From Strigamia acuminata (lineage: Eukaryota; Arthropoda; Chilopoda; Geophilomorpha; Linotaeniidae), in contig OX442318.1 in assembly GCA_949358305.1 (NCBI GenBank), positions 6,126,501 through 6,186,500 of the forward strand: DNA of 60,000 bases. The letters are read 5' to 3'. Position numbers and translations under genes: made by a program. A model generated the notes under the pieces. The model was not told the DNA's origin and made no database searches. It worked only from the letters and a program-made list of their open reading frames with translations. Each line of letters begins with the position of its first letter. Within the stretch, counting starts at the first letter, position 1. Positions 30,790 through 59,442 of the stretch are shown here, piece by piece.

Positions 30790-33700
30790 TTTCAACATGT
30801 TTTCCACGATGGACGATAATTTCGGATACGTCTAATGAATCTACAGTGGAATTTGAGCTAATTTTGCACGGTAAGCGATAAATTCGGATGCTTTTTTGGA
30901 TGTATTGTACGGATTGAAGCTTGTTTTGCACGGTGGATTTTTTGGTTTTGTTGTGTAGTTTCAGCAAGTTTTTCACGGTGGGCGATAAAATCGGATGGAT
31001 TTTTTGGTTTTGTTGTGCAGTTTTAGCAAGTTTTGCACGGTGGGCGATAAAATCGGATGGATTTTTTGGTTTTGTTGTGCAGTTTCAGCAAGTTTTTCAC
31101 GGTGAGCGATAAAATCGGATGGATTTTTTGGTTTTGCTGTGTAGTTTCAGCAAGTTTTTAACGGTGGGCGATAAAATCGGATGGATTTTTTGGTTTTGCT
31201 GTGTAGTTTCAGCAAGTTTTTCACGGTGAGCGATAAAATCGGATGGATTTTTTGGTTTTGTTGTGCAGTTTTAGCAAGTTTTGCACGGTGGGCGATAAAA
31301 TCGGATGGATTTTTTGGTTTTGTTGTGCAGTTTTAGCAAGTTTTTCACGGTGGGCGATAAAATCGGATAAATTTTTTGGTTTTGCTGTGTAGTTTCAGCA
31401 AGTTTTTCACGGTGGGCGATAAAATCGGATGAATTTTTTGGTTTTGTTGTGTAGTTTCAGCAAGTTTTTCACGGTGAGCGATAAAATCGGATGGATTTTT
31501 TGGTTTTGTTGTGCAGTTTCAGCAAGTTTTTCACGGTGAGCGATAAAATCGGATGGATTTTTTGGTTTTGCTGTGTAGTTTCAGCAAGTTTTTAACGGTG
31601 GGCGATAAAATCGGATGGATTTTTTGGTTTTGCTGTGTAGTTTCAGCAAGTTTTTCACGGTGAGCGATAAAATCGGATGGATTTTTTGGTTTTGTTGTGC
31701 AGTTTTAGCAAGTTTTTCACGGTGGGCGATAAAATCGGATGGATTTTTTGGTTTTGCTGTGTAGTTTCAGCAAGTTTTTCACGGTGGGCGATAAAATCGG
31801 ATGAATTTTTTGGTTTTGTTGTGTAGTTTCAGCAAGTTTTTCACGGTGAGCGATAAAATCGGATGGATTTTTTGGTTTTGTTGTGCAGTTTCAGCAAGTT
31901 TTTCACGGTGAGCGATAAAATCGGATGGATTTTTTGGTTTTGCTGTGTAGTTTCAGCAAGTTTTTAACGGTGGGCGATAAAATCGGATGGATTTTTTGGT
32001 TTTGCTGTGTAGTTTCAGCAAGTTTTTCACGGTGAGCGATAAAATCGGATGGATTTTTTGGTTTTGTTGTGCAGTTTTAGCAAGTTTTTCACGGTGGGCG
32101 ATAAAATCGGATGGATTTTTTGGTTTTGCTGTGTAGTTTCAGCAAGTTTTTCACGGTGGGCGATAAAATCGGATGAATTTTTTGGTTTTGTTGTGTAGTT
32201 TCAGCAAGTTTTTCACGGTGAGCGATAAAATCGGATGGATTTTTTGGTTTTGCTGTGTAGTTTCAGCAAGTTTTTAACGGTGGGCGATAAAATCGGATGG
32301 ATTTTTTGGTTTTGCTGTGTAGTTTCAGCAAGTTTTTCACGGTGAGCGATAAAATCGGATGGATTTTTTGGTTTTGTTGTGCAGTTTTAGCAAGTTTTTC
32401 ACGGTGGGCGATAAAATCGGATGGATTTTTTGGTTTTGCTGTGTAGTTTCAGCAAGTTTTTCACGGTGGGCGATAAAATCGGATGAATTTTTTGGTTTTG
32501 TTGTGTAGTTTCAGCAAGTTTTTCACGGTGAGCGATAAAATCGGATGGATTTTTTGGTTTTGTTGTGCAGTTTCAGCAAGTTTTTCACGGTGAGCGATAA
32601 AATCGGATGGATTTTTTGGTTTTGCTGTGTAGTTTCAGCAAGTTTTTAACGGTGGGCGATAAAATCGGATGGATTTTTTGGTTTTGCTGTGTAGTTTCAG
32701 CAAGTTTTTCACGGTGAGCGATAAAATCGGATGGATTTTTTGGTTTTGTTGTGCAGTTTTAGCAAGTTTTTCACGGTGGGCGATAAAATCGGATGGATTT
32801 TTTGGTTTTGCTGTGTAGTTTCAGCAAGTTTTTCACGGTGGGCGATAAAATCGGATGAATTTTTTGGTTTTGTTGTGTAGTTTCAGCAAGTTTTTCACGG
32901 TGAGCGATAAAATCGGATGGATTTTTTGGTTTTGTTGTGCAGTTTCAGCAAGTTTTTCACGGTGAGCGATAAAATCGGATGGATTTTTTGGTTTTGCTGT
33001 GTAGTTTCAGCAAGTTTTTAACGGTGGGCGATAAAATCGGATGGATTTTTTGGTTTTGCTGTGTAGTTTCAGCAAGTTTTTCACGGTGAGCGATAAAATC
33101 GGATGGATTTTTTGGTTTTGTTGTGCAGTTTTAGCAAGTTTTTCACGGTGGGCGATAAAATCGGATGGATTTTTTGGTTTTGCTGTGTAGTTTCAGCAAG
33201 TTTTTCACGGTGGGCGATAAAATCGGATGAATTTTTTGGTTTTGTTGTGTAGTTTCAGCAAGTTTTTCACGGTGAGCGATAAAATCGGATGGATTTTTTG
33301 GTTTTGTTGTGCAGTTTCAGCAAGTTTTTCACGGTGAGCGATAAAATCGGATGGATTTTTTGGTTTTGCTGTGTAGTTTCAGCAAGTTTTTAACGGTGGG
33401 CGATAAAATCGGATGGATTTTTTGGTTTTGCTGTGTAGTTTCAGCAAGTTTTTCACAGTGAGCGATAAAATCGGATGGATTTTTTGGTTTTGTTGTGCAG
33501 TTTCAGCAAGTTTTGCACGGTGGGCGATAAATTCGGATGCTGTTTTGGATTTATTGTAAGGTTTGAAGGTAGTTTTGATCGTGTGCGATAAATTCGGATG
33601 CGTTTATTGGTTTTGCTGTGTAGTATCAATAAATAAAATAAAATAAATAAATAATAAATATATCCGATAAATTCGGATGTGTTTTATGGATTTGCAGCGA

Positions 33701-36397: not shown

Positions 36398-37121
36398 AGA
36401 AGTGTAATCTCATTTGATTAAATTCACAGTCGGTCAAGTGTTCCCGTTAGTTTTAGACCTGTATCGCTGAAGCAGTCGTAGATACGCAACTTCTGCTGCC
36501 AGATTCGAACTGTGGGGGTTATTTCGCATATTTTACATTCGTTTCCACATTATTTTTACAATTTTTTGTACGTATTTCGTAAGAAAATTCATACGTTGTA
36601 GTTTGCGCCAGACCTGCTAACTGACTTTTATCTCGGATCTGCATTTAGATTAATGTTATCTGCTTGGATTTAATGATAGTTTTAATCCCCATTATCTGGC
36701 ACTTTGTAACATTTTAAACGCTTTTCACTTTACACATAGTTATTTCGAGTTGTGTCATAAATATATTGCAAAAATAATACTTAAAACCTAATTAATTATT
36801 ATATTGTGTGGCCAAATACCTTTCGGAGATCAAACGTTGTTTTCTTCGTTCACCGACTTCACTTATATTCAATAACGACGTCATTAATTTAAATTTTACG
36901 ATCCGATTTGAATAATTTCCAGTTTTTAGTCTGTCGCCGATTTTTAAGTCAAAATTATTAAATTGGAGCTGATTTTTCGGTCACCGAATTGAGGATATAT
37001 AAACTTCTTGTTTAGCAGTAAAGCTCAGGGGTAGCTTAGTAGGAAAAAATTGAAAAAATAAAATAAACAAATAAAATTTTTATTGAAAACAATTATTTAC
37101 ACAAAACAGAATAAAATAAAA
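36398..37121. other. Convergent gap, zinc-finger gene / ATPase cluster
   Basis: 3' flanks of two genes facing each other. The last ~100 bases are A-rich and contain aataaa on the minus strand side for the ATPase transcript. I saw no gene or structured element. Confidence 0.5.
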
Positions 37122-40100
37122 TCAATAATAAGTTTCTCTGTAAAAATATCCGCCCGGGTATCTCCGAATTTGCCATTTTCGGAACTCGTCGTAGATCATA
37201 ATGATGAGAAAAAATGGCAGCGGAACGAGCCACCATTCCCACCTAAAATGAAAATGCAGCCGTTACTTTATTGTGGAATTATAAGGATTTTAAAGCATAC
37301 TTTAGAGGATAAGTTCGAAGAACAGTGTGCATTCCTGGTACGTAAGCAAGAATTATGACCACAACGGTCTCGAAAACCAAAGCGAAATTCAGGACGTGAT
37401 TCCTTAATAAAAGGGTGAGAAAAAGTGGAATTTGTCGCATCAAATAATGAGGAAAACAAACTTCATTCCATGCGTGAAAATAGAGAGTGTTCTTGTTTTT
37501 GATATGAGCAAATCGGCCCACTGCACCTCGACAATGGCGAGGAAAAAGGCCGTGTGGCAAGTGTACTCCAACGTCTTCCGTGCGGTATAAGACTTACAAA
37601 ATATAAATAAAAATATTTCGATAAATTTCAAAAATTTTCCAAATTTTTGTTAAAAAACCGTCTCAATTTTTCGACAAAAATGTCTCAATTTTTCGACAAA
37701 AATGTCTCAATTTTTCGACAAAAATGTCTCAATTTTTCGACAAAAATGTCTCAATTTTTCGACAAAAATGTCTCAATTTTTCGACAAAAATGTCTCAATT
37801 TTTCGACAAAAATGTCTCAATTTTTCGACAAAAATGTCTCAATTTTTCGACAAAAATGTCTCAATTTTTCGACAAAAATGTCTCAATTTTTCGACAAAAA
37901 TGTCTCAATTTTTCGACAAAAATGTCTCAATTTTTCGACAAAAATGTCTCAATTTTTCGACAAAAATGTCTCAATTTTTCGACAAAAATGTCTCAATTTT
38001 TCGACAAAAATGTCTCAATTTTTCGACAAAAATGTCTCAATTTTTCGACAAAAATGTCTCAATTTTTCGACAAAAATGTCTCAATTTTTCAAAAAAATGT
38101 CTCAATTTTTCAAAAAAATGTCTCAATTTTTCGACAAAAATGTCTCAATTTTTCGACAAAAATGTCTCAATTTTTCGACAAAAATGTCTCAATTTTTCGA
38201 CAAAAATGTCTCAATTTTTCGACAAAAATGTCTCAATTTTTCAAAAAAATGTCTCAATTTTTCAAAAAAATGTCTCCATTTTTCAAAAAAATGTCTCAAT
38301 TTTTCAAAAAAATGTCTCAATTTTTCAAAAAAATGTCTCAATTTTTCAAAAAAATGTCTCAATTTTTCAAAAAAATGTCTCAATTTTTCAAAAAAATGTC
38401 TCAATTTTTCAAAAAAATGTCTCAATTTTTCCAAATTATGTCAACATTTTTCCAAATTATGTCAACATTTTTCCAAATTATGTCAACATTTTTCCAAATT
38501 ATGTCAACATTTTTCCAAATTATGTCAAAATTTTTCCAAATTATGTCAACATTTTTCAAAATTATGTCAACATTTTTCAAAATTATGTCAAAATTTTTCC
38601 AAAAAAAAGTCTCAATTTTTAAAAGAAATGTCAAAATTTAAAAAAAAAGTCAAAATTTTAAAAGAAATGTCAAAATTTTAAAAGAAATGTCAAAATTTTA
38701 AAAGAAATGTCAAAATTTTAAAAGAAATGTCAAAATTTTAAAAAGTAATGTCATATTTCTTTTAAAAAAAGTCTAAATTTCCAAAAATTTCTGCAAAAAT
38801 CAGCAAATATCAACAAACACCAAAAACTAAAAAAATTAAACAAAAACTTAATCACCAAACACCACATCACTTCAAATACCCAATTCTGGCCATAAGAATC
38901 CTGTATATCATTGATTCCTCTCGAATCCCACGTTGCCCTAAGCCCAATCAAACGTAGTGGCCAGAACCCGTGTTGCGCCATAATATAAAAATAAATAAAA
39001 AACCCAGCCGCCGCTTGAATCATCCCAATTTGCAAATACGACACGTGAATAAGCCTAAAAATCAACAAAAACAAATAAAAACAAAACAAAAACCCAAATC
39101 CCTCTCCAATTCCACCTCGCATTGACCAATCTGTCGGTCCTCGGGTTTCGCGGCCTCCTGGACATCAAATCCTTCTCGCCCTTCTCGTACGCCATAGAAA
39201 TAGCCGGCACCATGTCCGTGCCGAGATCAATGCACAAAATCGTGACGGCGCCGAGTGGCAGCGGAATGCCGATGACCATGAAGAGCAGAAAAGGACTCAC
39301 TTCCGGTATTTTGCTACTCAAAGTGTACGCGATGGATTTCTTCAAGTTGTCAAAAATCAATCGTCCCTCCTCGACGCCCGTCACGATCGAGGCGAAGTTG
39401 TCGTCGAGCAGAATCATGTCGGCAGCTTGCTTGCTCACGTCGCTGCCCGAGATGCCCATCGCGATGCCGATGTCGGCTTTTTTCAGCGCGGGCGAGTCGT
39501 TCACGCCGTCGCCCGTTACGGCCACGATGGCGCCCAGGCGCTGACACGCTTCGACTATGATGAGTTTTTGTTGGGGCGAAGTTCGGGCGAAAACCATTTC
39601 TGGACATTTCATTAGGATTTCGTCCAGAACTTTCGGTTCGAGGTCTTTTAATTGCGATCCGCTCACCACCGCCACTTTGGCGAGTCTGTGAAAAGACAAA
39701 ATTGGGGATTCGTAATACGCGCGACATTCTTACGCACGACAATGGATGTTTTTGGTCAAAAATTGGATTTTTTGGTCAAAAATTGGATTTTTTGGTCAAA
39801 AATTGGATTTTTTGGTCAAAAATTGGATTTTTTGGTCAAAAATTGGATTTTTTGGTCAAAAATTGGATTTTTTGGTCAAAAATTGGATTTTTTGGTCAAA
39901 AATTGGATTTTTTGGTCAAAAATTGGATTTTTTGGTCAAAAATTGGATTTTTTGGTCAAAAATTGGATTTTTTGGTCAAAAATTGGATTTTTTGGTCAAA
40001 AATTGGATTTTTTGGTCAAAAATTGGATTTTTTGGTCAAAAATTGGATTTTTTGGTCAAAAATTGGATTTTTTGGTCAAAAATTGGATTTTTTGGTCAAA

Positions 40101-43100
40101 AATTGGATTTTTTGGTCAAAAATTGAACGTTAGTAGTTGAAAAAATGAATTTTGGGTTGAAAAAATGAATCTGGTGGAAAAAAATGAATTTCTGGTCGCA
40201 AATAAAATTCTGGTCCAAAAATAAAATGAAAAGTGCCCAAGATGGGTGAGTGGTGACCATAAAGATTTGTTTTTACGATTTGTCGACGGTGGTAAAAGTT
40301 TTGTTCGTCCGTTCGGCAATTTCGTCCAACGTCTCGCCGGGTAAGGAAATGATCCCGACTTTCCGCGCGATGGCCTTGGCCGTGATCGGATGGTCGCCCG
40401 TCACCATGATCACTCTGATTCCCGCGCTCTTGCACAAGGCCACTGCATTTGGAACTTCCGGTCTTGCAGGATCGATGAGCGACAAACATCCGGCAAAACA
40501 CAATTTATCCAAAGGGAAATTCACATTCTCACTGTCGAATGGAAACCCTTTAAGATATTTGTTTTTCGGCAAATTCAGAAAAGCAAAACCTTCAAAAATT
40601 AATAAAAATTAATCAAATTCAACAAGAAAAATCTTTTTCAATTTTCAACACGATCGGATTAAGGTTTCTGAGGGCCCCCTCGAACCAGAAATGATATCTT
40701 CAAGCAGAAAAATGCATTTTTATGAGAAATAAATTCATGTTAAGCTGAAAAAATTGCATTTCCACAAAAAAATGCATTTATAGACAAAAAAAACAAGCAT
40801 TTTTATCTGTACAGTACAACCTTGATTAACGAAACACCGGTTATCCGAACTTTCGGTTGTCCGAACAGCAGTAATGCGTTTTTATCAATTTTTTACCGGT
40901 TTTCATTGGTTTTTAAATCAATTTTCAACGTTTTTGACAGTTTGTATCCACTTTTGGTCGGTTATAATGCTTTCTAACTACATTTTAATGACTTTTTATT
41001 TCCACATGCCGTACAGCAGGGGTTCTCAAACTTTTTAGCATCGCAACCCATTTTTAAGCGAGGCGATCTTCCGCGCCCCACTTCATCTACCGGTGCATTA
41101 AATTTTTCAAAAATAAACTACTAATAAGAAAGAAAAAAAAGAAATTTTGCATAAAATCAACTCGCGCCTCAAAGTTTGGGAAACGCTGCCGTACAGTATA
41201 TGTATAATCGAGGATCTACTATACCAGGGGGCCCTTTAGAATTGGAGGCCCCTTAATCCAACCTTCTATTTTTACCAAGCACTCGTTCACCCATTCCACC
41301 CAAAGCGAGGCATGCAGCTTCAAATTTCTTTGTATACACTGGAGTCATAGGCACTTCCTTCCCGTTCAAGTAAATCGAAGAGCAGCGATCAAAAATCCTT
41401 TCTGGAGCGCCTTTCATCATAATTATGTAAAATGTTTCGCTTCCAGGCGGAGTTTCGTGAACCGAAACCTGCGAACAAAGGAATCCTTCATTCAGCGCGG
41501 CCATTTTGAATCGCTTAACAGTTAACTCCCTCTCGTGTCAAAATATATTAAAATATAAAATTTTTTTTACTTGATATTTATTATTAGAATTGAATGGAAT
41601 TTCAGCCACTTTTTGGTATTTCTTCCTCATGTTTTCGACCTCTTTAAAAGTGACTGTCAATGCAGCGAACTTGAGCAATCCCGCCTCTGAAGCGTCGCTG
41701 GTCGCTTCTCGTTTTAATATCGGTATGTCGTCCTGGTCCGGTTTAAAGATGGCCCGGTTGCACAGGATGGCCACCTGTGTGATCATCGTAAATCCTACTT
41801 TGTCTTTATAGCTCTTGGAATCTAAAAAAAACGATTAGACAATTTGCCCGCAGATGGCAGCACCGTAGGTTCGTTTTAGCAACGGAAGCAACTTTAAACT
41901 GACCTAACCTGACCTTGTGACCAACTGGCCGCCGCCAGTCAGCACTGGCAACATCAATAAGAGAATCCTCAGCAGCTCCTACGACGTATCGTCGGAGCTG
42001 CGTCCTGATTGCAGCCAATCAGGACAGAGGATTACACAAGGTCTCCTCGTGACTTGACCGCTATCTTGGAGACAGTTCGATCTCCAGTCCCGTGCTGACT
42101 GGTTGTGACATCTCTAACGAGAAGGAGATGACGGCGACGTGGGTCGCAACAAGAGGCCTGATCGCTCTCAAGTCCGACATGACTTGAGGTGACTCGTTGA
42201 CCGTGCTGCAAGGCACGGCAAGGCAAACGCAATCCGACCACGCTGCCCATGTGGTCCTCAACCATGTGGTCAGCCGTTGGACTGGGCTGGGTTGCTGCAA
42301 GGCAACCCAGCAACCTAGGCGATAACACGGTGAACGCACAACCCCTAGACAACCACAATAAAGATATTCAATCCAAACTGTGTTCTCTGTGTTGTACTTA
42401 ATCGTGAATGGTGTCCAAACGCCCCATGGCCCCATGGCCCCATGGTCCCCCCCAAGAGGCGACCGACCGTCACTCACAACCCAACCACCAGTCTGCTTGC
42501 ATCGCTAAAACGACCCGCTGCTATAATGATTGACGTCCGGCACCAAGTTGTGCGTCGGTGATGTCTATTTCTACTATTCCATCGTCCACCCAAGCGTGCA
42601 GCACCGTCATTCTATTTTGAGTCAATGTTCCGGTCTTGTCCGAGCAGATTGTACTCGTGGAACCGAGTGTTTCCACTCCTTCGAGGTTCTTCACCAAACA
42701 ATTCTTCTTCGCCATCTTTTTCGCCGTTAACGTGAGGCAGACCTAGTTTAAAATACATTTCAATATTCGCCACCCGATGGCGCACTGCAGCCGCCATTTT
42801 ACCGTCACGGTGGCCAATAAACCTTCGGGAACTTTTCCCACGATAATTCCGATTGTGATGACGATTCCTTCGATCCACTCGTATCCCAAGATCATGGAAA
42901 CGGCGAAGCAAATGGCGCCGAGAATAAAAGCGGCAACCGTGATGATTTTAATAAAATGTTGAATTTCTCTGGCGATCGGAGTTTCCCCGCTCTCGATCCC
43001 GGAAGCCAATGATGCGATTCGGCCCATTATCGTGTTGTCGCCGATCAACACCACTATACCGCGCGCTTCACCTAGCGTCAATAAAACCAACTAATAAACC

Positions 43101-44271
43101 ACTTAAAAAATCGAAACTAAAATTACCTTCGACACAATTTGTTGAGAAAAATGCGAGGTTTTTCGTCTCTAATGGGTTTTCACTCGTCATTTCGACGGCC
43201 CGAGATTGGGGCTCAGATTCACCGGTCAACGACGAGTTGTCCACTTTGAGTGACCGCACTTGGATTATCCGAATGTCGGCCGGACAACGATCCCCCATAG
43301 ACACGTCGATGATGTCGCCCACAGTCACCTCTCGTGACGGAATTAGATACTTTTGTCCGTTTCGGAGCACGTGGGCTTTCTGCAAATAAATGAAATAAAT
43401 AAATAAAATAAATAAACATTCGTTTTTTAGATTCTATTTCGTCCAACTCACGGGCGGCGCTAAATTTTTGAACGATTTCATAATTTGTCCGCTTTTGTGT
43501 TCCTGGTAGAACGAAAAGATGCCGGTGATGAGGACCACACCGGCGAGCACGGCGCCTAAATACAGCTGTAATTAACCCAATAAATATTAAAATACGTTTT
43601 GTTTGCACTTAATTTATTCATTTCACGCCTACGTTGTCTTTGTACGCTTGCGAGTCGCGTGAAACTTGTATTCCGTACGCTATGAAGCAAAGAATCGATC
43701 CAACCCAAAGCAAGAGTTGGAAACCGCCGAATAAATTGCGGCAGAAAACGACCCAAGCCGGTGTCCCGCCGGTCGCTGTTAACTCGTTAAAACCGTATTT
43801 TTTAAGTCTTTCTTGAACTTGTAAATCACTTAAACCCTACAATAATCATTAAAATACATTAAAATCATTATTTTTACTGTAATTTGCTCATTTTGGGACG
43901 CAATTAGCCAATTTTTATCAATTTTTATCTGTGGAGCCCCACAGTTAGAGTACCGTGCACGCACTAGTGCTTCGTTTACAGTACACTCCATTTAATTCGA
44001 GGTTTAATTCGTGTTTACCTTGGTCGGATCGACTTCCAAACGTTTGTACAATTGGTTGAGCGGAATTTTATGCTCGTCCTAAAAATAATAAATAATCACA
44101 TCTTTTATTTTATTATTTAAATATTTGACATTAAATATATTTACCATGTCCACCTCCTTCTTCAAGTCCGACATCTTCTCCGCTTTCTTCTTCCCCACCT
44201 GTGAAAAACCAAATTTTTAATTTAAAATTAATTTAATATAACCCCCAACTCATTTTACGTCATTTTACCAT
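37122..44271 (-). CDS. Na+/K+-ATPase alpha subunit, 'KK' type (Lys in TM4 and TM5)
   Basis: P2C-type pump alpha chain, 1003 residues in 16 coding exons: 44269-44271 (ATG only), 44145-44198, 44019-44078, 43633-43836, 43452-43565, 43127-43379, 42803-43071, 42544-42742, 41571-41821, 41276-41468, 40277-40589, 39116-39685, 38880-39054, 37462-37592, 37301-37402 and 37122-37242. Phases close throughout. [10 protein letters not shown], the phosphorylated Asp354 in [39 protein letters not shown] and the C-terminal ETYY are present. TM4 reads [11 protein letters not shown] (Lys309) where pumps normally have VANVPEG. TM5 reads [11 protein letters not shown] (Lys763) where they have SNIPE. TM6 Asp residues ([10 protein letters not shown]) are kept. 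The C-terminus [14 protein letters not shown] is also unusual. The two Lys match the brine shrimp alpha2-KK pattern. Altered ion stoichiometry is inference. Confidence 0.95.
37660..38760. repeat. 22-bp minisatellite in KK-ATPase intron
   Basis: About 26 virtually identical copies of tctcaatttttcgacaaaaatg are followed by blocks of 21-22 bp variants (tctcaatttttcaaaaaaat, gtcaacatttttccaaattat, gtcaaaattttaaaagaaat). Each block is internally homogeneous, so the array grew in successive waves. All three plus-strand frames are open across it; they are not genes. Confidence 0.97.
39750..40130. repeat. Perfect 20-bp minisatellite in KK-ATPase intron
   Basis: About 18 copies of ttttttggtcaaaaattgga with essentially no differences, between the exons starting at 39685 and ending at 40277. 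The identity points to very recent expansion or to assembly collapse. Confidence 0.97.
40812..41221. mobile_element. Pogo/mariner-like element, interrupted by a hAT element
   Basis: The left end, CAGTACAACCTTGATTAACG, pairs imperfectly with the right end (reverse complement TAGTAGATCCTCGATTATAC), and both are flanked by TA. The interior has the ggttatccgaac/ggttgtccgaac words typical of pogo/Tigger-type elements. It lies in the intron between the exons starting at 40589 and ending at 41276. Confidence 0.72.
41017..41188. mobile_element. hAT-like MITE, 172 bp, with 8-bp target duplication
   Basis: The left end, CAGGGGTTCTCAAACTTT, and the right end (reverse complement CAGCGTTTCCCAAACTTT) form 18-bp imperfect inverted repeats. 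The 8 bases ccgtacag directly flank both sides (41009-41016 and 41189-41196), the hallmark of hAT transposition. It is inserted within the pogo-like element, so it is younger. Confidence 0.9.
41850..42500. mobile_element. GC-rich insertion, possible LTR fragment
   Basis: The intron between the exons starting at 41821 and ending at 42544 is about 720 nt and much richer in GC than its surroundings. It contains two strong short hairpins (cagctcctacgacg/tatcgtcggagctg and cctgattgcagccaatcagg) and aataaag at 42357 followed by a G/T-rich stretch. Near 42408 is atggtgtccaaacg, which could be a primer-binding site. That resembles an LTR with R/U5 and the start of the internal region. No matched ends or target duplication were found. 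Confidence 0.4.
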
Positions 44272-44898
44272 TTTTAATTTGCGTGTTCTTTCCGAAATAC
44301 GTGGTTTTGATTCAAACGATCAACTCTCCGCTCTGTCGTAATGTATTAGTGCAATAGAACACAGTCACGCGACAATGAAACGAGACGACATCTTTGTTAT
44401 GTAGCAGTAATTTTTATTATTTCCATTTCAATTCTTCACTGCACAATCATTTATTTATTTTTTAATTAATAATACTGTATAGTGACAGTTTAAAAGCGAT
44501 TGTTTCTATAGTAAACCCTTACAATTGCTAAGTAAAGCCATTTATAATCTATATATACAGAAATAGAATTTTTCATTTCTAGATTTCTTTATATCACATT
44601 ATGTAAATGATTTTTTTTTTCTCTTTTCTTTTTATTATCATTTTTTCCTCCATCTTTTTACATAATAAAATGCACGACACTAGAAGTAGATTTCTACAAA
44701 AGGCGAGAATGATTATTAAGCGAGCAATATAATTTGATTTGTCCACAAAGTAAAAACCTTTCAACCAGGATTGATCATTTTCTAAGTTTTTGTTTTAAAT
44801 GCAAATGTGTGAAAATATAATATATATATTTATAGAATTTTTGTTATTATTATTACTATTTTTTTTCTTCTTTTTTCTTTATTGGAAATCACATTTTG
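44272..44898. other. Spacer between ATPase copies 1 and 2
   Basis: Only ~630 bases separate the stop of the upstream copy from the start codon of the KK copy, both on the minus strand. It should contain the 3' end of one and the promoter of the other. Very AT-rich; an aataaa on the minus strand lies within 25 bases of the upstream stop. Confidence 0.6.
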
Positions 44899-54457
<9,559 letters not shown>

Positions 54458-58291: not shown

Positions 58292-58412
58292 TCAATAATA
58301 TGTCTCTTCTTCGACCCAACCACCGGGATTCCGGCGTAAAATGAATCGACGGGCTTCGTCGTAAACCCAGATCAATAAACTGAATGGAAGTGCTGGTAAC
58401 CACCAATAGAAT
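58292..58412 (-). CDS. Na+/K+-ATPase alpha subunit, third copy, last exon only
   Basis: A 121-nt terminal exon encodes [20 protein letters not shown] then [19 protein letters not shown] and stop, the TM10 and C-terminal tail of an alpha subunit. Exon length and entry phase equal those of the last exons of copies 1 and 2. The preceding exon is not within the remaining 1.6 kb, so the gene body lies beyond base 60000. It is clearly closer to copy 2 than to the KK copy. Confidence 0.9.
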
Positions 58413-58563: not shown

Positions 58564-59442
58564 CCAGGCCAGACTTACGTATAAGCAAAATAAGCAGTTG
58601 CTTAGAGGCCCCCATCCACCGGGTGCCCCTTGACGCATATATATTTATATTTATTATATATCAGTGTTGCATCGAACGCGAACTAAGTTTATTCGTTCAC
58701 AAACGACGTTCAATTTTTAAAAAAAAAATTGAAAAGTGAACGTGAACTATTGGTTTAAGTTCGTGAACGTGAACTATTGGTTTAAGTTCGTGAACGTGAA
58801 CTATTGGTTTAAGTTCGTGAACGTGAACTATTGGTTTAAGTTCGTGAACGTGAACTATTGGTTTAAGTTCGTGAACGTGAACTATTGGTTTAAGTTCGTG
58901 AACGTGAACTATTGGTTTAAGTTCGTGAACGTGAACTATTGGTTTAAGTTCGTGAACGTGAACTATTGGTTTAAGTTCGTGAACGTGAACTATTGGTTTA
59001 AGTTCGTGAACGTGAACTATTGGTTTAAGTTCGTGAACGTGAACTATTGGTTTAAGTTCGTGAACGTGAACTATTGGTTTAAGTTCGTGAACGTGAACTA
59101 TTGGTTTAAGTTCGTGAACGTGAACTATTGGTTTAAGTTCGTGAACGTGAACTATTGGTTTAAGTTCGTGAACGTGAACTATTGGTTTAAGTTCGTGAAC
59201 GTGAACTATTGGTTTAAGTTCGTGAACGTGAACTATTGGTTTAAGTTCGTGAACGTGAACTATTGGTTTATGTTCGTGAATGTGAACTTGAACGCGTTCA
59301 TATTTAAGTGAACGAGATACAACAGAACAACAATAATAGATCTATTTCTTAGATTTTTTGAGATTAAACTTTTCTTGTTAGATGGTGGGGCCCCAAAAAA
59401 ATTTTGTGCTTAGGGGCCCCGCAATACCTAAATCTGGGCCTG
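58564..59442. mobile_element. hAT-like non-autonomous element, 879 bp, with 8-bp target duplication
   Basis: The left end, CAGGCCAGACTTACG, is mirrored by the right end (reverse complement CAGGCCCAGATTTAGG). Both continue into gaggcccc/ggggcccc motifs around a gcttag word. The 8 bases tgtatttg flank each side exactly (58556-58563 and 59443-59450). The interior contains a 27-bp minisatellite and no transposase. Confidence 0.9.
58738..59290. repeat. 27-bp minisatellite inside hAT element
   Basis: About 20 perfect copies of a 27-bp unit containing gtgaacgtgaactattggtt. The length is a multiple of three, so it reads as a nonapeptide repeat; it is not a gene. Flanking sequence on both sides carries gaacg/cgttc words from which the unit probably arose. 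Confidence 0.97.

What the first reader, a model, noticed from the sequence alone, without database searches (positions are those of the whole stretch)
37122..44271. Na+/K+-ATPase alpha with two Asn-to-Lys changes in the ion-binding helices (alpha-KK type)
The sequence shows TM4 as [11 protein letters not shown] and TM5 as [11 protein letters not shown]. Nearly all animal Na+/K+ pumps have VANVPEG and SNIPE. As I recall, exactly these two Asn-to-Lys changes define the brine shrimp Artemia alpha2-KK pump, reported to move fewer ions per ATP and to be induced at high salinity. Finding the pair in an otherwise intact gene next to a conventional copy suggests a specialised pump for steep ion gradients in this animal. 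It could be shared ancestry with the Artemia gene or convergence.
Basis: partly seen in the sequence, partly recalled or inferred. Interest (0 to 1): 0.95.

Follow-up and report, generated by a model that had tools for sequence, protein, structure and literature searches.

The report
Centipede sodium pump with two lysines
A woodland centipede carries an intact sodium-potassium pump gene with the same two lysine changes that let brine shrimp run a 2-sodium:1-potassium pump, which suggests that this rare pump design also exists in a land animal.

Summary
Minus strand 44271-37122 is an intact Na+/K+-ATPase alpha gene (16 coding exons, all introns GT-AG, 1003 aa) with Lys309 in TM4 and Lys763 in TM5, the equivalents of pig Asn324 and Asn776. 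PDB 8k1l, Artemia alpha2KK, has lysine at the same two positions. The genome is Strigamia acuminata, usually an inland woodland centipede. KK is one of three tandem alpha genes; of six family members found in the genome only KK has the pair. Among 357 database proteins fetched, one unnamed protein, P0255, also has both lysines; 33 have the TM5 lysine. Most likely KK is a working pump of the KK type, by analogy moving 2 Na+ per 1 K+; expression and stoichiometry are inferred. Shared descent with Artemia or convergence is unresolved: KK is a long branch, the AU tests run reject nothing, only 109 Artemia residues could be read, and the weak indications point both ways. An intron that B and C lack suggests that KK split off before B and C parted. 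Use in an absorbing epithelium such as the coxal organs is speculation.

The parts
37122..44271 (-). KK gene, coding span: Na+/K+-ATPase alpha with Lys309 and Lys763, 16 coding exons, 1003 aa
   Evidence: exon model with GT-AG introns; independent spliced alignment of exons 2-16; TIGR01106 1583 bits, cut-off 946
42833..42835 (-). codon AAA, Lys309 in TM4 (pig Asn324)
   Evidence: pig numbering from the 3wgu row
39310..39312 (-). codon AAA, Lys763 in TM5 (pig Asn776)
   Evidence: pig numbering from the 3wgu row
42803..43071 (-). KK coding exon 7, carries TM3-TM4
39116..39685 (-). KK coding exon 12, carries TM5-TM6
44269..44271 (-). KK coding exon 1 in the model, a lone ATG; uncertain
   Evidence: not recovered by the spliced alignment
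37079..37084 (-). AATAAA just past the KK stop codon
   Evidence: offset 38
44899..54457 (-). gene B, conventional alpha ([14 protein letters not shown]), 17 coding exons, 1018 aa; part of the tandem array
58292..58412 (-). last coding exon of gene C, the third tandem alpha (conventional), which runs past the window end to at least about 79.4 kb in window coordinates
   Evidence: last exon; rest of the gene, L021 and L022

Best explanation
KK is a functional Na+/K+-ATPase alpha paralogue of the centipede Strigamia acuminata that carries the full two-lysine change of the Artemia alpha2KK pump. By analogy Lys763 in TM5 sits in the ion cavity as a tethered positive charge in place of a transported ion, and Lys309 in TM4 compensates for lost K+ affinity, so that the pump moves 2 Na+ out and 1 K+ in per ATP instead of 3 and 2 and can hold a steeper Na+ gradient. 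Shown: the gene, its intactness, the two lysines, retention of the other ligands and motifs listed, the tandem array, and the same two lysines in PDB 8k1l. Inferred: expression, 2:1 stoichiometry, and the place of use.
For: Intact 16-exon gene. Same two positions as Artemia: 8k1l reads IIVAKVPEGLL from 304 and [21 protein letters not shown] from 744. Of the 19 other positions checked (ion ligands, P326 and the final YY), 17 are conventional; A323 is G and T774 is S. Phosphorylation, TGES, KGAPE, TGDGVND and hinge motifs intact. Fourfold sites agree with gene B at 96 of 259 (37%; 27% expected by chance), near saturation, with an open frame: long purifying selection. TM5-TM6 is the best kept part against B (56 of 70). 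A citing paper states that the M4 and M5 lysines of the brine shrimp pump allow cycling at 2 Na+ per 1 K+ (PMC10812997). Limiting Na+ ratio about 133 for 3:2 and about 6800 for 2:1 at 57 kJ/mol, -60 mV, Ki/Ko 20. Two beta-subunit loci exist in the genome.
Against: No RNA or protein evidence was available. KK is only 64% identical to B, so other changes, among them A323G and T774S, could alter the effect of the lysines. The animal does not live in brine, so the known reason for such a pump is missing. The first coding exon is uncertain.
Confidence: 0.72

Rival explanations
1. Origin by shared ancestry: KK and Artemia alpha2KK, and perhaps the divergent springtail alpha P0124 (Allacma fusca), descend from one ancient arthropod paralogue that gained the lysines once and was lost or reverted elsewhere. 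This concerns origin and is compatible with the best explanation.
For: KK joins P0124 (SH-aLRT 98) and, with P0129, (95); holding KK and P0124 together gave a better likelihood (p-AU 0.75). An intron at alignment column 556 is in KK, D, E and F but not in B and C, so KK looks older than the B/C split. Bit scores: KK-8k1l plus B-pig (1359.2 + 1722.1) exceed KK-pig plus B-8k1l (1404.5 + 1609.7) by 67 bits, which pairs KK with Artemia. Artemia and KK share six residues that under 30% of the conventional rows have, one of them in none.
Against: Those joins are flagged as long branches meeting. The bit-score sum is open to saturation because KK is divergent. P0124 has Asn in TM5, and its gene model lacks TM4. 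Over 107 readable columns without the lysines Artemia is 70% like KK but 76-80% like many conventional pumps.
Confidence: 0.42
2. Origin by convergence: the lysine pair arose separately in the centipede line and in Artemia, and perhaps again in the animal that gave P0255. This too is compatible with the best explanation.
For: TM5 lysine recurs: fewest changes 8 on a 124-row tree. TM4 lysine was seen only together with TM5 lysine (2 of 2 rows, plus Artemia), which fits a repeatable two-step path. Artemia is no closer to KK than to conventional pumps in the readable part.
Against: Trees do not resolve it: P0255 joins lophotrochozoan rows, Allacma, lophotrochozoans weakly (83/30) or the base, and KK with P0255 is not rejected (p-AU 0.365). 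The bit-score sum points the other way.
Confidence: 0.55
3. KK is expressed, but its pump is not a 2:1 pump: the lysines act differently in this background, for example as a slow or leaky 3:2 pump or a regulatory alpha.
For: 36% of residues differ from gene B; A323 is G and T774 is S.
Against: Nearly all ligands and the catalytic motifs are kept. From recall, putting the two lysines into Xenopus alpha1 was reported to give Artemia-like behaviour.
Confidence: 0.2
4. KK is a pseudogene, an unexpressed copy or an assembly error.
For: No expression data; several introns are minisatellite-rich; the first coding exon is only an ATG in the model.
Against: 1003 open codons, canonical splice sites, kept motifs, near-saturated silent sites; QV 59.6 assembly.
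Confidence: 0.05

Closest known systems
Artemia alpha2KK Na+/K+-ATPase (PDB 8k1l; Artigas et al. 2023 PNAS, not held; seen in reference lists and one citing passage)
   Same: Lysine at the same two positions (K308 and K758 there, K309 and K763 here), and otherwise an ordinary alpha.
   Different: Different animal and habitat; 70% identical over 107 readable columns; A323 is G here and A in Artemia; stoichiometry and salt induction are not tested here; orthology unresolved.
Conventional arthropod Na+/K+-ATPase alpha, such as genes B and C of the same genome
   Same: Same family, domains, catalytic motifs and most introns (12 of 15 KK introns shared with B, 12 with C).
   Different: Asn at both sites; 64% (B) and 63% (C) identical to KK.
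Alphas with the TM5 lysine only: teleosts such as zebrafish atp1a1a.3 and atp1a1a.5, fungus gnats, a caddisfly, a nematode (names)
   Same: Lysine at the pig Asn776 position.
   Different: Asn at the TM4 site in the 30 proteins readable at both sites.
P0255, unnamed protein of an 8798-base ENA contig
   Same: Lysine at both sites (VIVAKVPEGL, TLTSKIPEI).
   Different: 61% identical to KK over 848 residues; organism unknown; relation unresolved.
H+/K+-ATPases
   Same: Carry a lysine in TM5 close to the ion sites (lysine at the Ser777 position of rat alpha1, PMC10812997).
   Different: Their lysine is one residue earlier; KK keeps Ser there.

Membership tests
Na+/K+-ATPase alpha (P-type IIC) | match to the family model above its cut-off | tested here: met
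   TIGR01106 (Na,H/K type alpha) 1583.2 bits, cut-off 946.1, residues 5-1003; Pfam domains. This model does not part Na,K from H,K pumps.
Na+/K+-ATPase alpha (P-type IIC) | catalytic motifs and Na+ site III residues (Q923, D926, E954, final YY) | tested here: met
Na+/K+-ATPase alpha (P-type IIC) | Asn at pig positions 324 and 776 | tested here: not met
   Lys at both, as in Artemia alpha2KK, which is nevertheless filed as a Na+/K+-ATPase
KK-type pump (Artemia alpha2KK kind) | Lys at both positions with other ligands kept | tested here: met
KK-type pump (Artemia alpha2KK kind) | 2 Na+ : 1 K+ per ATP | not testable with these tools
   needs electrophysiology
KK-type pump (Artemia alpha2KK kind) | induction by salinity | not testable with these tools
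   no expression data
Orthologue of Artemia alpha2KK | groups with it in a tree | tested here: inconclusive
   only 109 Artemia residues; that fragment fell among teleost TM5-lysine rows, an implausible place; bit-score sum favours kinship but is open to saturation
H+/K+-ATPase | Lys at the pig Ser775 position | tested here: not met
   Ser762 in KK
Pseudogene | broken frame, splice sites or motifs | tested here: not met

The most novel reading that the evidence does not exclude
Two-lysine, 2 Na+ : 1 K+ sodium pumps evolved more than once along a repeatable path (TM5 lysine first, TM4 lysine as compensation), and in centipedes the pump powers an absorbing epithelium on land, such as the coxal organs. 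Reduced stoichiometry would then be a general answer to steep ion or water gradients and not a brine-shrimp speciality.
Probability: 0.22. Interest if true: 0.85.

Novelty: new member of a known kind. Interest (0 to 1): 0.68.

Why it matters
As far as I recall, the two-lysine pump is described only from Artemia, where it is tied to life in brine. An intact gene of this kind in a named land arthropod with a reference genome gives a second protein for testing whether the two lysines alone set the stoichiometry, and a natural test of what such a pump is for outside brine. P0255 hints that the design is more widespread. It also makes the order of the two changes testable, since TM5 lysine recurs alone while TM4 lysine was seen here only with it.

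Tried and rejected
Getting the whole Artemia sequence: queries with full KK, gene B, P0255 and P0124 put 8k1l at ranks 19, 18, 18 and 18, too low for its alignment to be printed; a 248-residue piece and a 50-residue piece gave ranks 19 and 18, and a masked query rank 18. Only three short pieces of KK brought it into the printed rows, giving 109 residues.

Placing KK: quick LG trees and a mixture-model tree whose bootstrap had not settled disagree about KK, P0255 and Allacma. My notebook entry 5 calls P0255 an independent KK; the later runs show that this was too strong, and I withdraw it. Rows dropped: E, F and proteins of 850 residues or less (then thinned to 124 rows); 30 chosen rows; 59 and 60 chosen rows. 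One search ended with an error after it printed its count of changes; one search repeated the tree.

Rejected: pseudogene or assembly error; H+/K+-ATPase; a recent tandem copy of B or C (about 64% identical to both, and an intron that both lack). An origin of KK together with B, C and P0105 is nevertheless not rejected by the AU test (p 0.335).

Not done: structure prediction, because the spliced protein is not among the sequences which that tool says it accepts; the 18S search (one search did not complete). No other centipede genome was searched, so conservation of KK in Chilopoda is untested.

Literature: searches found no papers; one search found 8, among them papers that cite the Artemia work. 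These searches cover an open-access library only and do not show that nothing is in print.
Full report
WHAT IS THERE. The minus strand from 44271 to 37122 gives a complete Na+/K+-ATPase alpha gene: 16 coding exons, 15 GT-AG introns, 3012 coding bases with the stop, 1003 aa, ending RETYY. An AATAAA begins 38 bases past the stop. A spliced alignment with the neighbour's protein gave the same exons from exon 2 on. The first coding exon, a lone ATG, is the weak point; 627 bases separate it from the stop codon of gene B upstream. The protein scores 1583 bits against TIGR01106 (cut-off 946) and has the expected Pfam domains.

THE TWO LYSINES. Lys309 (codon AAA, 42835-42833) and Lys763 (AAA, 39312-39310) align with pig alpha-1 Asn324 and Asn776 (3wgu row). 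The PDB chain 8k1l_A, named Na+,K+-ATPase alpha2KK, reads IIVAKVPEGLL from residue 304 and [21 protein letters not shown] from residue 744, so its lysines are residues 308 and 758, the same two positions. A review lists 8K1L as Artemia salina (PMC11172918, passages). At the 19 other positions checked, KK is conventional at 17; A323 is G and T774 is S. The motifs [36 protein letters not shown] and [17 protein letters not shown] are intact.

HOW UNUSUAL. Three protein searches matched 7989, 3511 and 3907 proteins, of which the best 120 each were listed; with three repeats that makes 357 proteins. None of the 120 of the full-length search has either lysine (120 VAN; 119 LTSN, 1 unread). Over all 357 the TM4 column reads N 296, K 1, gap 60 and the TM5 column N 312, K 33, gap 12; searches used K-bearing stretches as queries, so the sample leans towards K, and more KK proteins may be hidden below the lists. 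The one TM4-K protein, P0255, also has TM5-K; it comes from an unnamed ENA contig and is 61% identical to KK over 848 residues. TM5 lysine recurs: fewest changes 8 on a tree of 124 rows, in fungus gnats, a caddisfly, a nematode, fishes and unnamed rows (names). A fish paper discusses this asparagine and its replacement among isoforms (PMC3857534, passages). The rare part is the TM4 lysine and the pair.

THE ANIMAL. The genome that holds the window has 237,517,015 bases in 157 contigs. Contig C1 is 66,985,994 bases, exactly the longest scaffold of the Strigamia acuminata assembly, whose span is 237.5 Mb with a 15.07 kb mitochondrion (PMC10556566, first of three parts of the text read; C157 is 15,068 bases). 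The paper calls it usually an inland species, most common in deciduous woodland, though some coastal records exist. The paper counts 158 scaffolds and 237,534,282 bp, so about 17 kb is absent here.

ITS FAMILY. Six Na+/K+-ATPase-like alphas were found (such searches give lower bounds). KK, B (44899-54457) and C (58292 to at least about 79.4 kb in window coordinates) stand head to tail on one strand. D lies on the same contig at 10.87 Mb, E on C1, F on C8. B and C are conventional, D has VANVPEG and LTANLPE, E and F deviate at the sites. Only KK has the pair. Identities: KK-B 64%, KK-C 63%, B-C 81%. At 259 shared fourfold sites KK and B agree at 96 (37%; 27% by chance), so silent sites are near saturation while the frame stayed open, which speaks for long purifying selection. 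Two beta-subunit loci lie side by side on C10.

ORIGIN. Of 15 KK introns 12 are shared with B and 12 with C. An intron at alignment column 556 is in KK, D, E and F but not in B or C; one at 403 is in KK and C only. The simplest reading is that KK split off before B and C parted. Trees made without the two lysine columns settle no more. KK joins the springtail protein P0124 (SH-aLRT 98, flagged as long branches meeting), falls near the root, sits with two copepod-side rows and Allacma in the mixture-model tree (85/30), and joins P0124 and P0129, which looks to me like a non-animal row. P0255 moves as well. AU tests reject none of the three groupings tried: KK with P0255 p 0.365; KK with B, C and P0105 p 0.335; KK with P0124 p 0.75. 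Over 107 Artemia columns without the lysines, Artemia is 70% like KK and 76-80% like many conventional pumps; the fragment itself fell among teleost TM5-lysine rows, which shows that it cannot be placed. Against convergence: six residues shared by Artemia and KK are uncommon in conventional rows, and the bit-score sum pairs KK with Artemia by 67 bits, though saturation can cause that. I lean slightly to convergence, about 55%.

HOW IT PROBABLY WORKS. A citing paper states that the M4 and M5 lysines of a brine shrimp pump allow cycling with 2 Na+ per 1 K+, likening this to a tethered cation (PMC10812997, passages and first part of the Discussion). From recall of the Artigas et al. 2023 abstract (paper not held), the TM5 lysine lies in the ion cavity and the TM4 lysine helps to keep K+ affinity high. 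If KK works alike, its limiting Na+ ratio rises from about 133 to about 6800 at 57 kJ/mol, -60 mV and Ki/Ko 20. Where a centipede needs such a gradient is open. [quoted passage not shown] Placing KK there is speculation; Malpighian tubules, hindgut, or Na+ uptake from dilute soil water are as open.

VERDICT. The gene is a new member of a known kind in an unexpected animal. Function and ancestry are open and testable.

Noticed in passing
window 50743-50856 and 50444-50557 (-): Gene B has two neighbouring 114-base exons for TM2, both with AG/GT borders and in frame, which look like mutually exclusive alternatives.
   Followed up: partly
L024 (G000:C1:53168501-53178000): Gene E keeps an open frame over 16 predicted exons but has DRTGIL for DKTGTL, TGIGVLDVPA for [10 protein letters not shown] and no LTGESEPQ: it looks like a catalytically dead alpha-like protein.
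   Followed up: no
L025-L026 (G000:C8:12630001-12643000): Gene F is a divergent alpha with VGSVPDG in TM4 and without the usual IPE in TM5, while DKTGTLTQ is kept.
   Followed up: no
window 44272-44898: Only 627 bases lie between the stop of gene B and the modelled KK start. B exon 1 ends in phase 0 and KK exon 2 starts in phase 0, so a shared leader exon is conceivable.
   Followed up: no
window 37652-38787, 39743-40125, 47646-48280, 30934-33628, 58736-59288: Long minisatellites with units of 20 to 62 bases, several inside introns of KK and B.
   Followed up: no
L030-L031 (G000:C157): The mitochondrial contig has a rearranged gene order and an apparently duplicated stretch: the same 70-residue open frame at 8513-8304 and 11495-11286, and a Tyr tRNA called beside each.
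   Followed up: no
P0255: An unnamed 859-residue alpha from an 8798-base ENA contig with lysine at both sites, a further KK pump of an unknown organism.
   Followed up: partly
P0122, P0123, P0171, P0172: TM5 lysine without TM4 lysine in two fungus gnats, a nematode and a caddisfly, next to the known fish cases.
   Followed up: partly
P0124: A divergent Allacma fusca alpha whose gene model lacks TM4; its true TM4 residue would help to judge the origin of KK.
   Followed up: no
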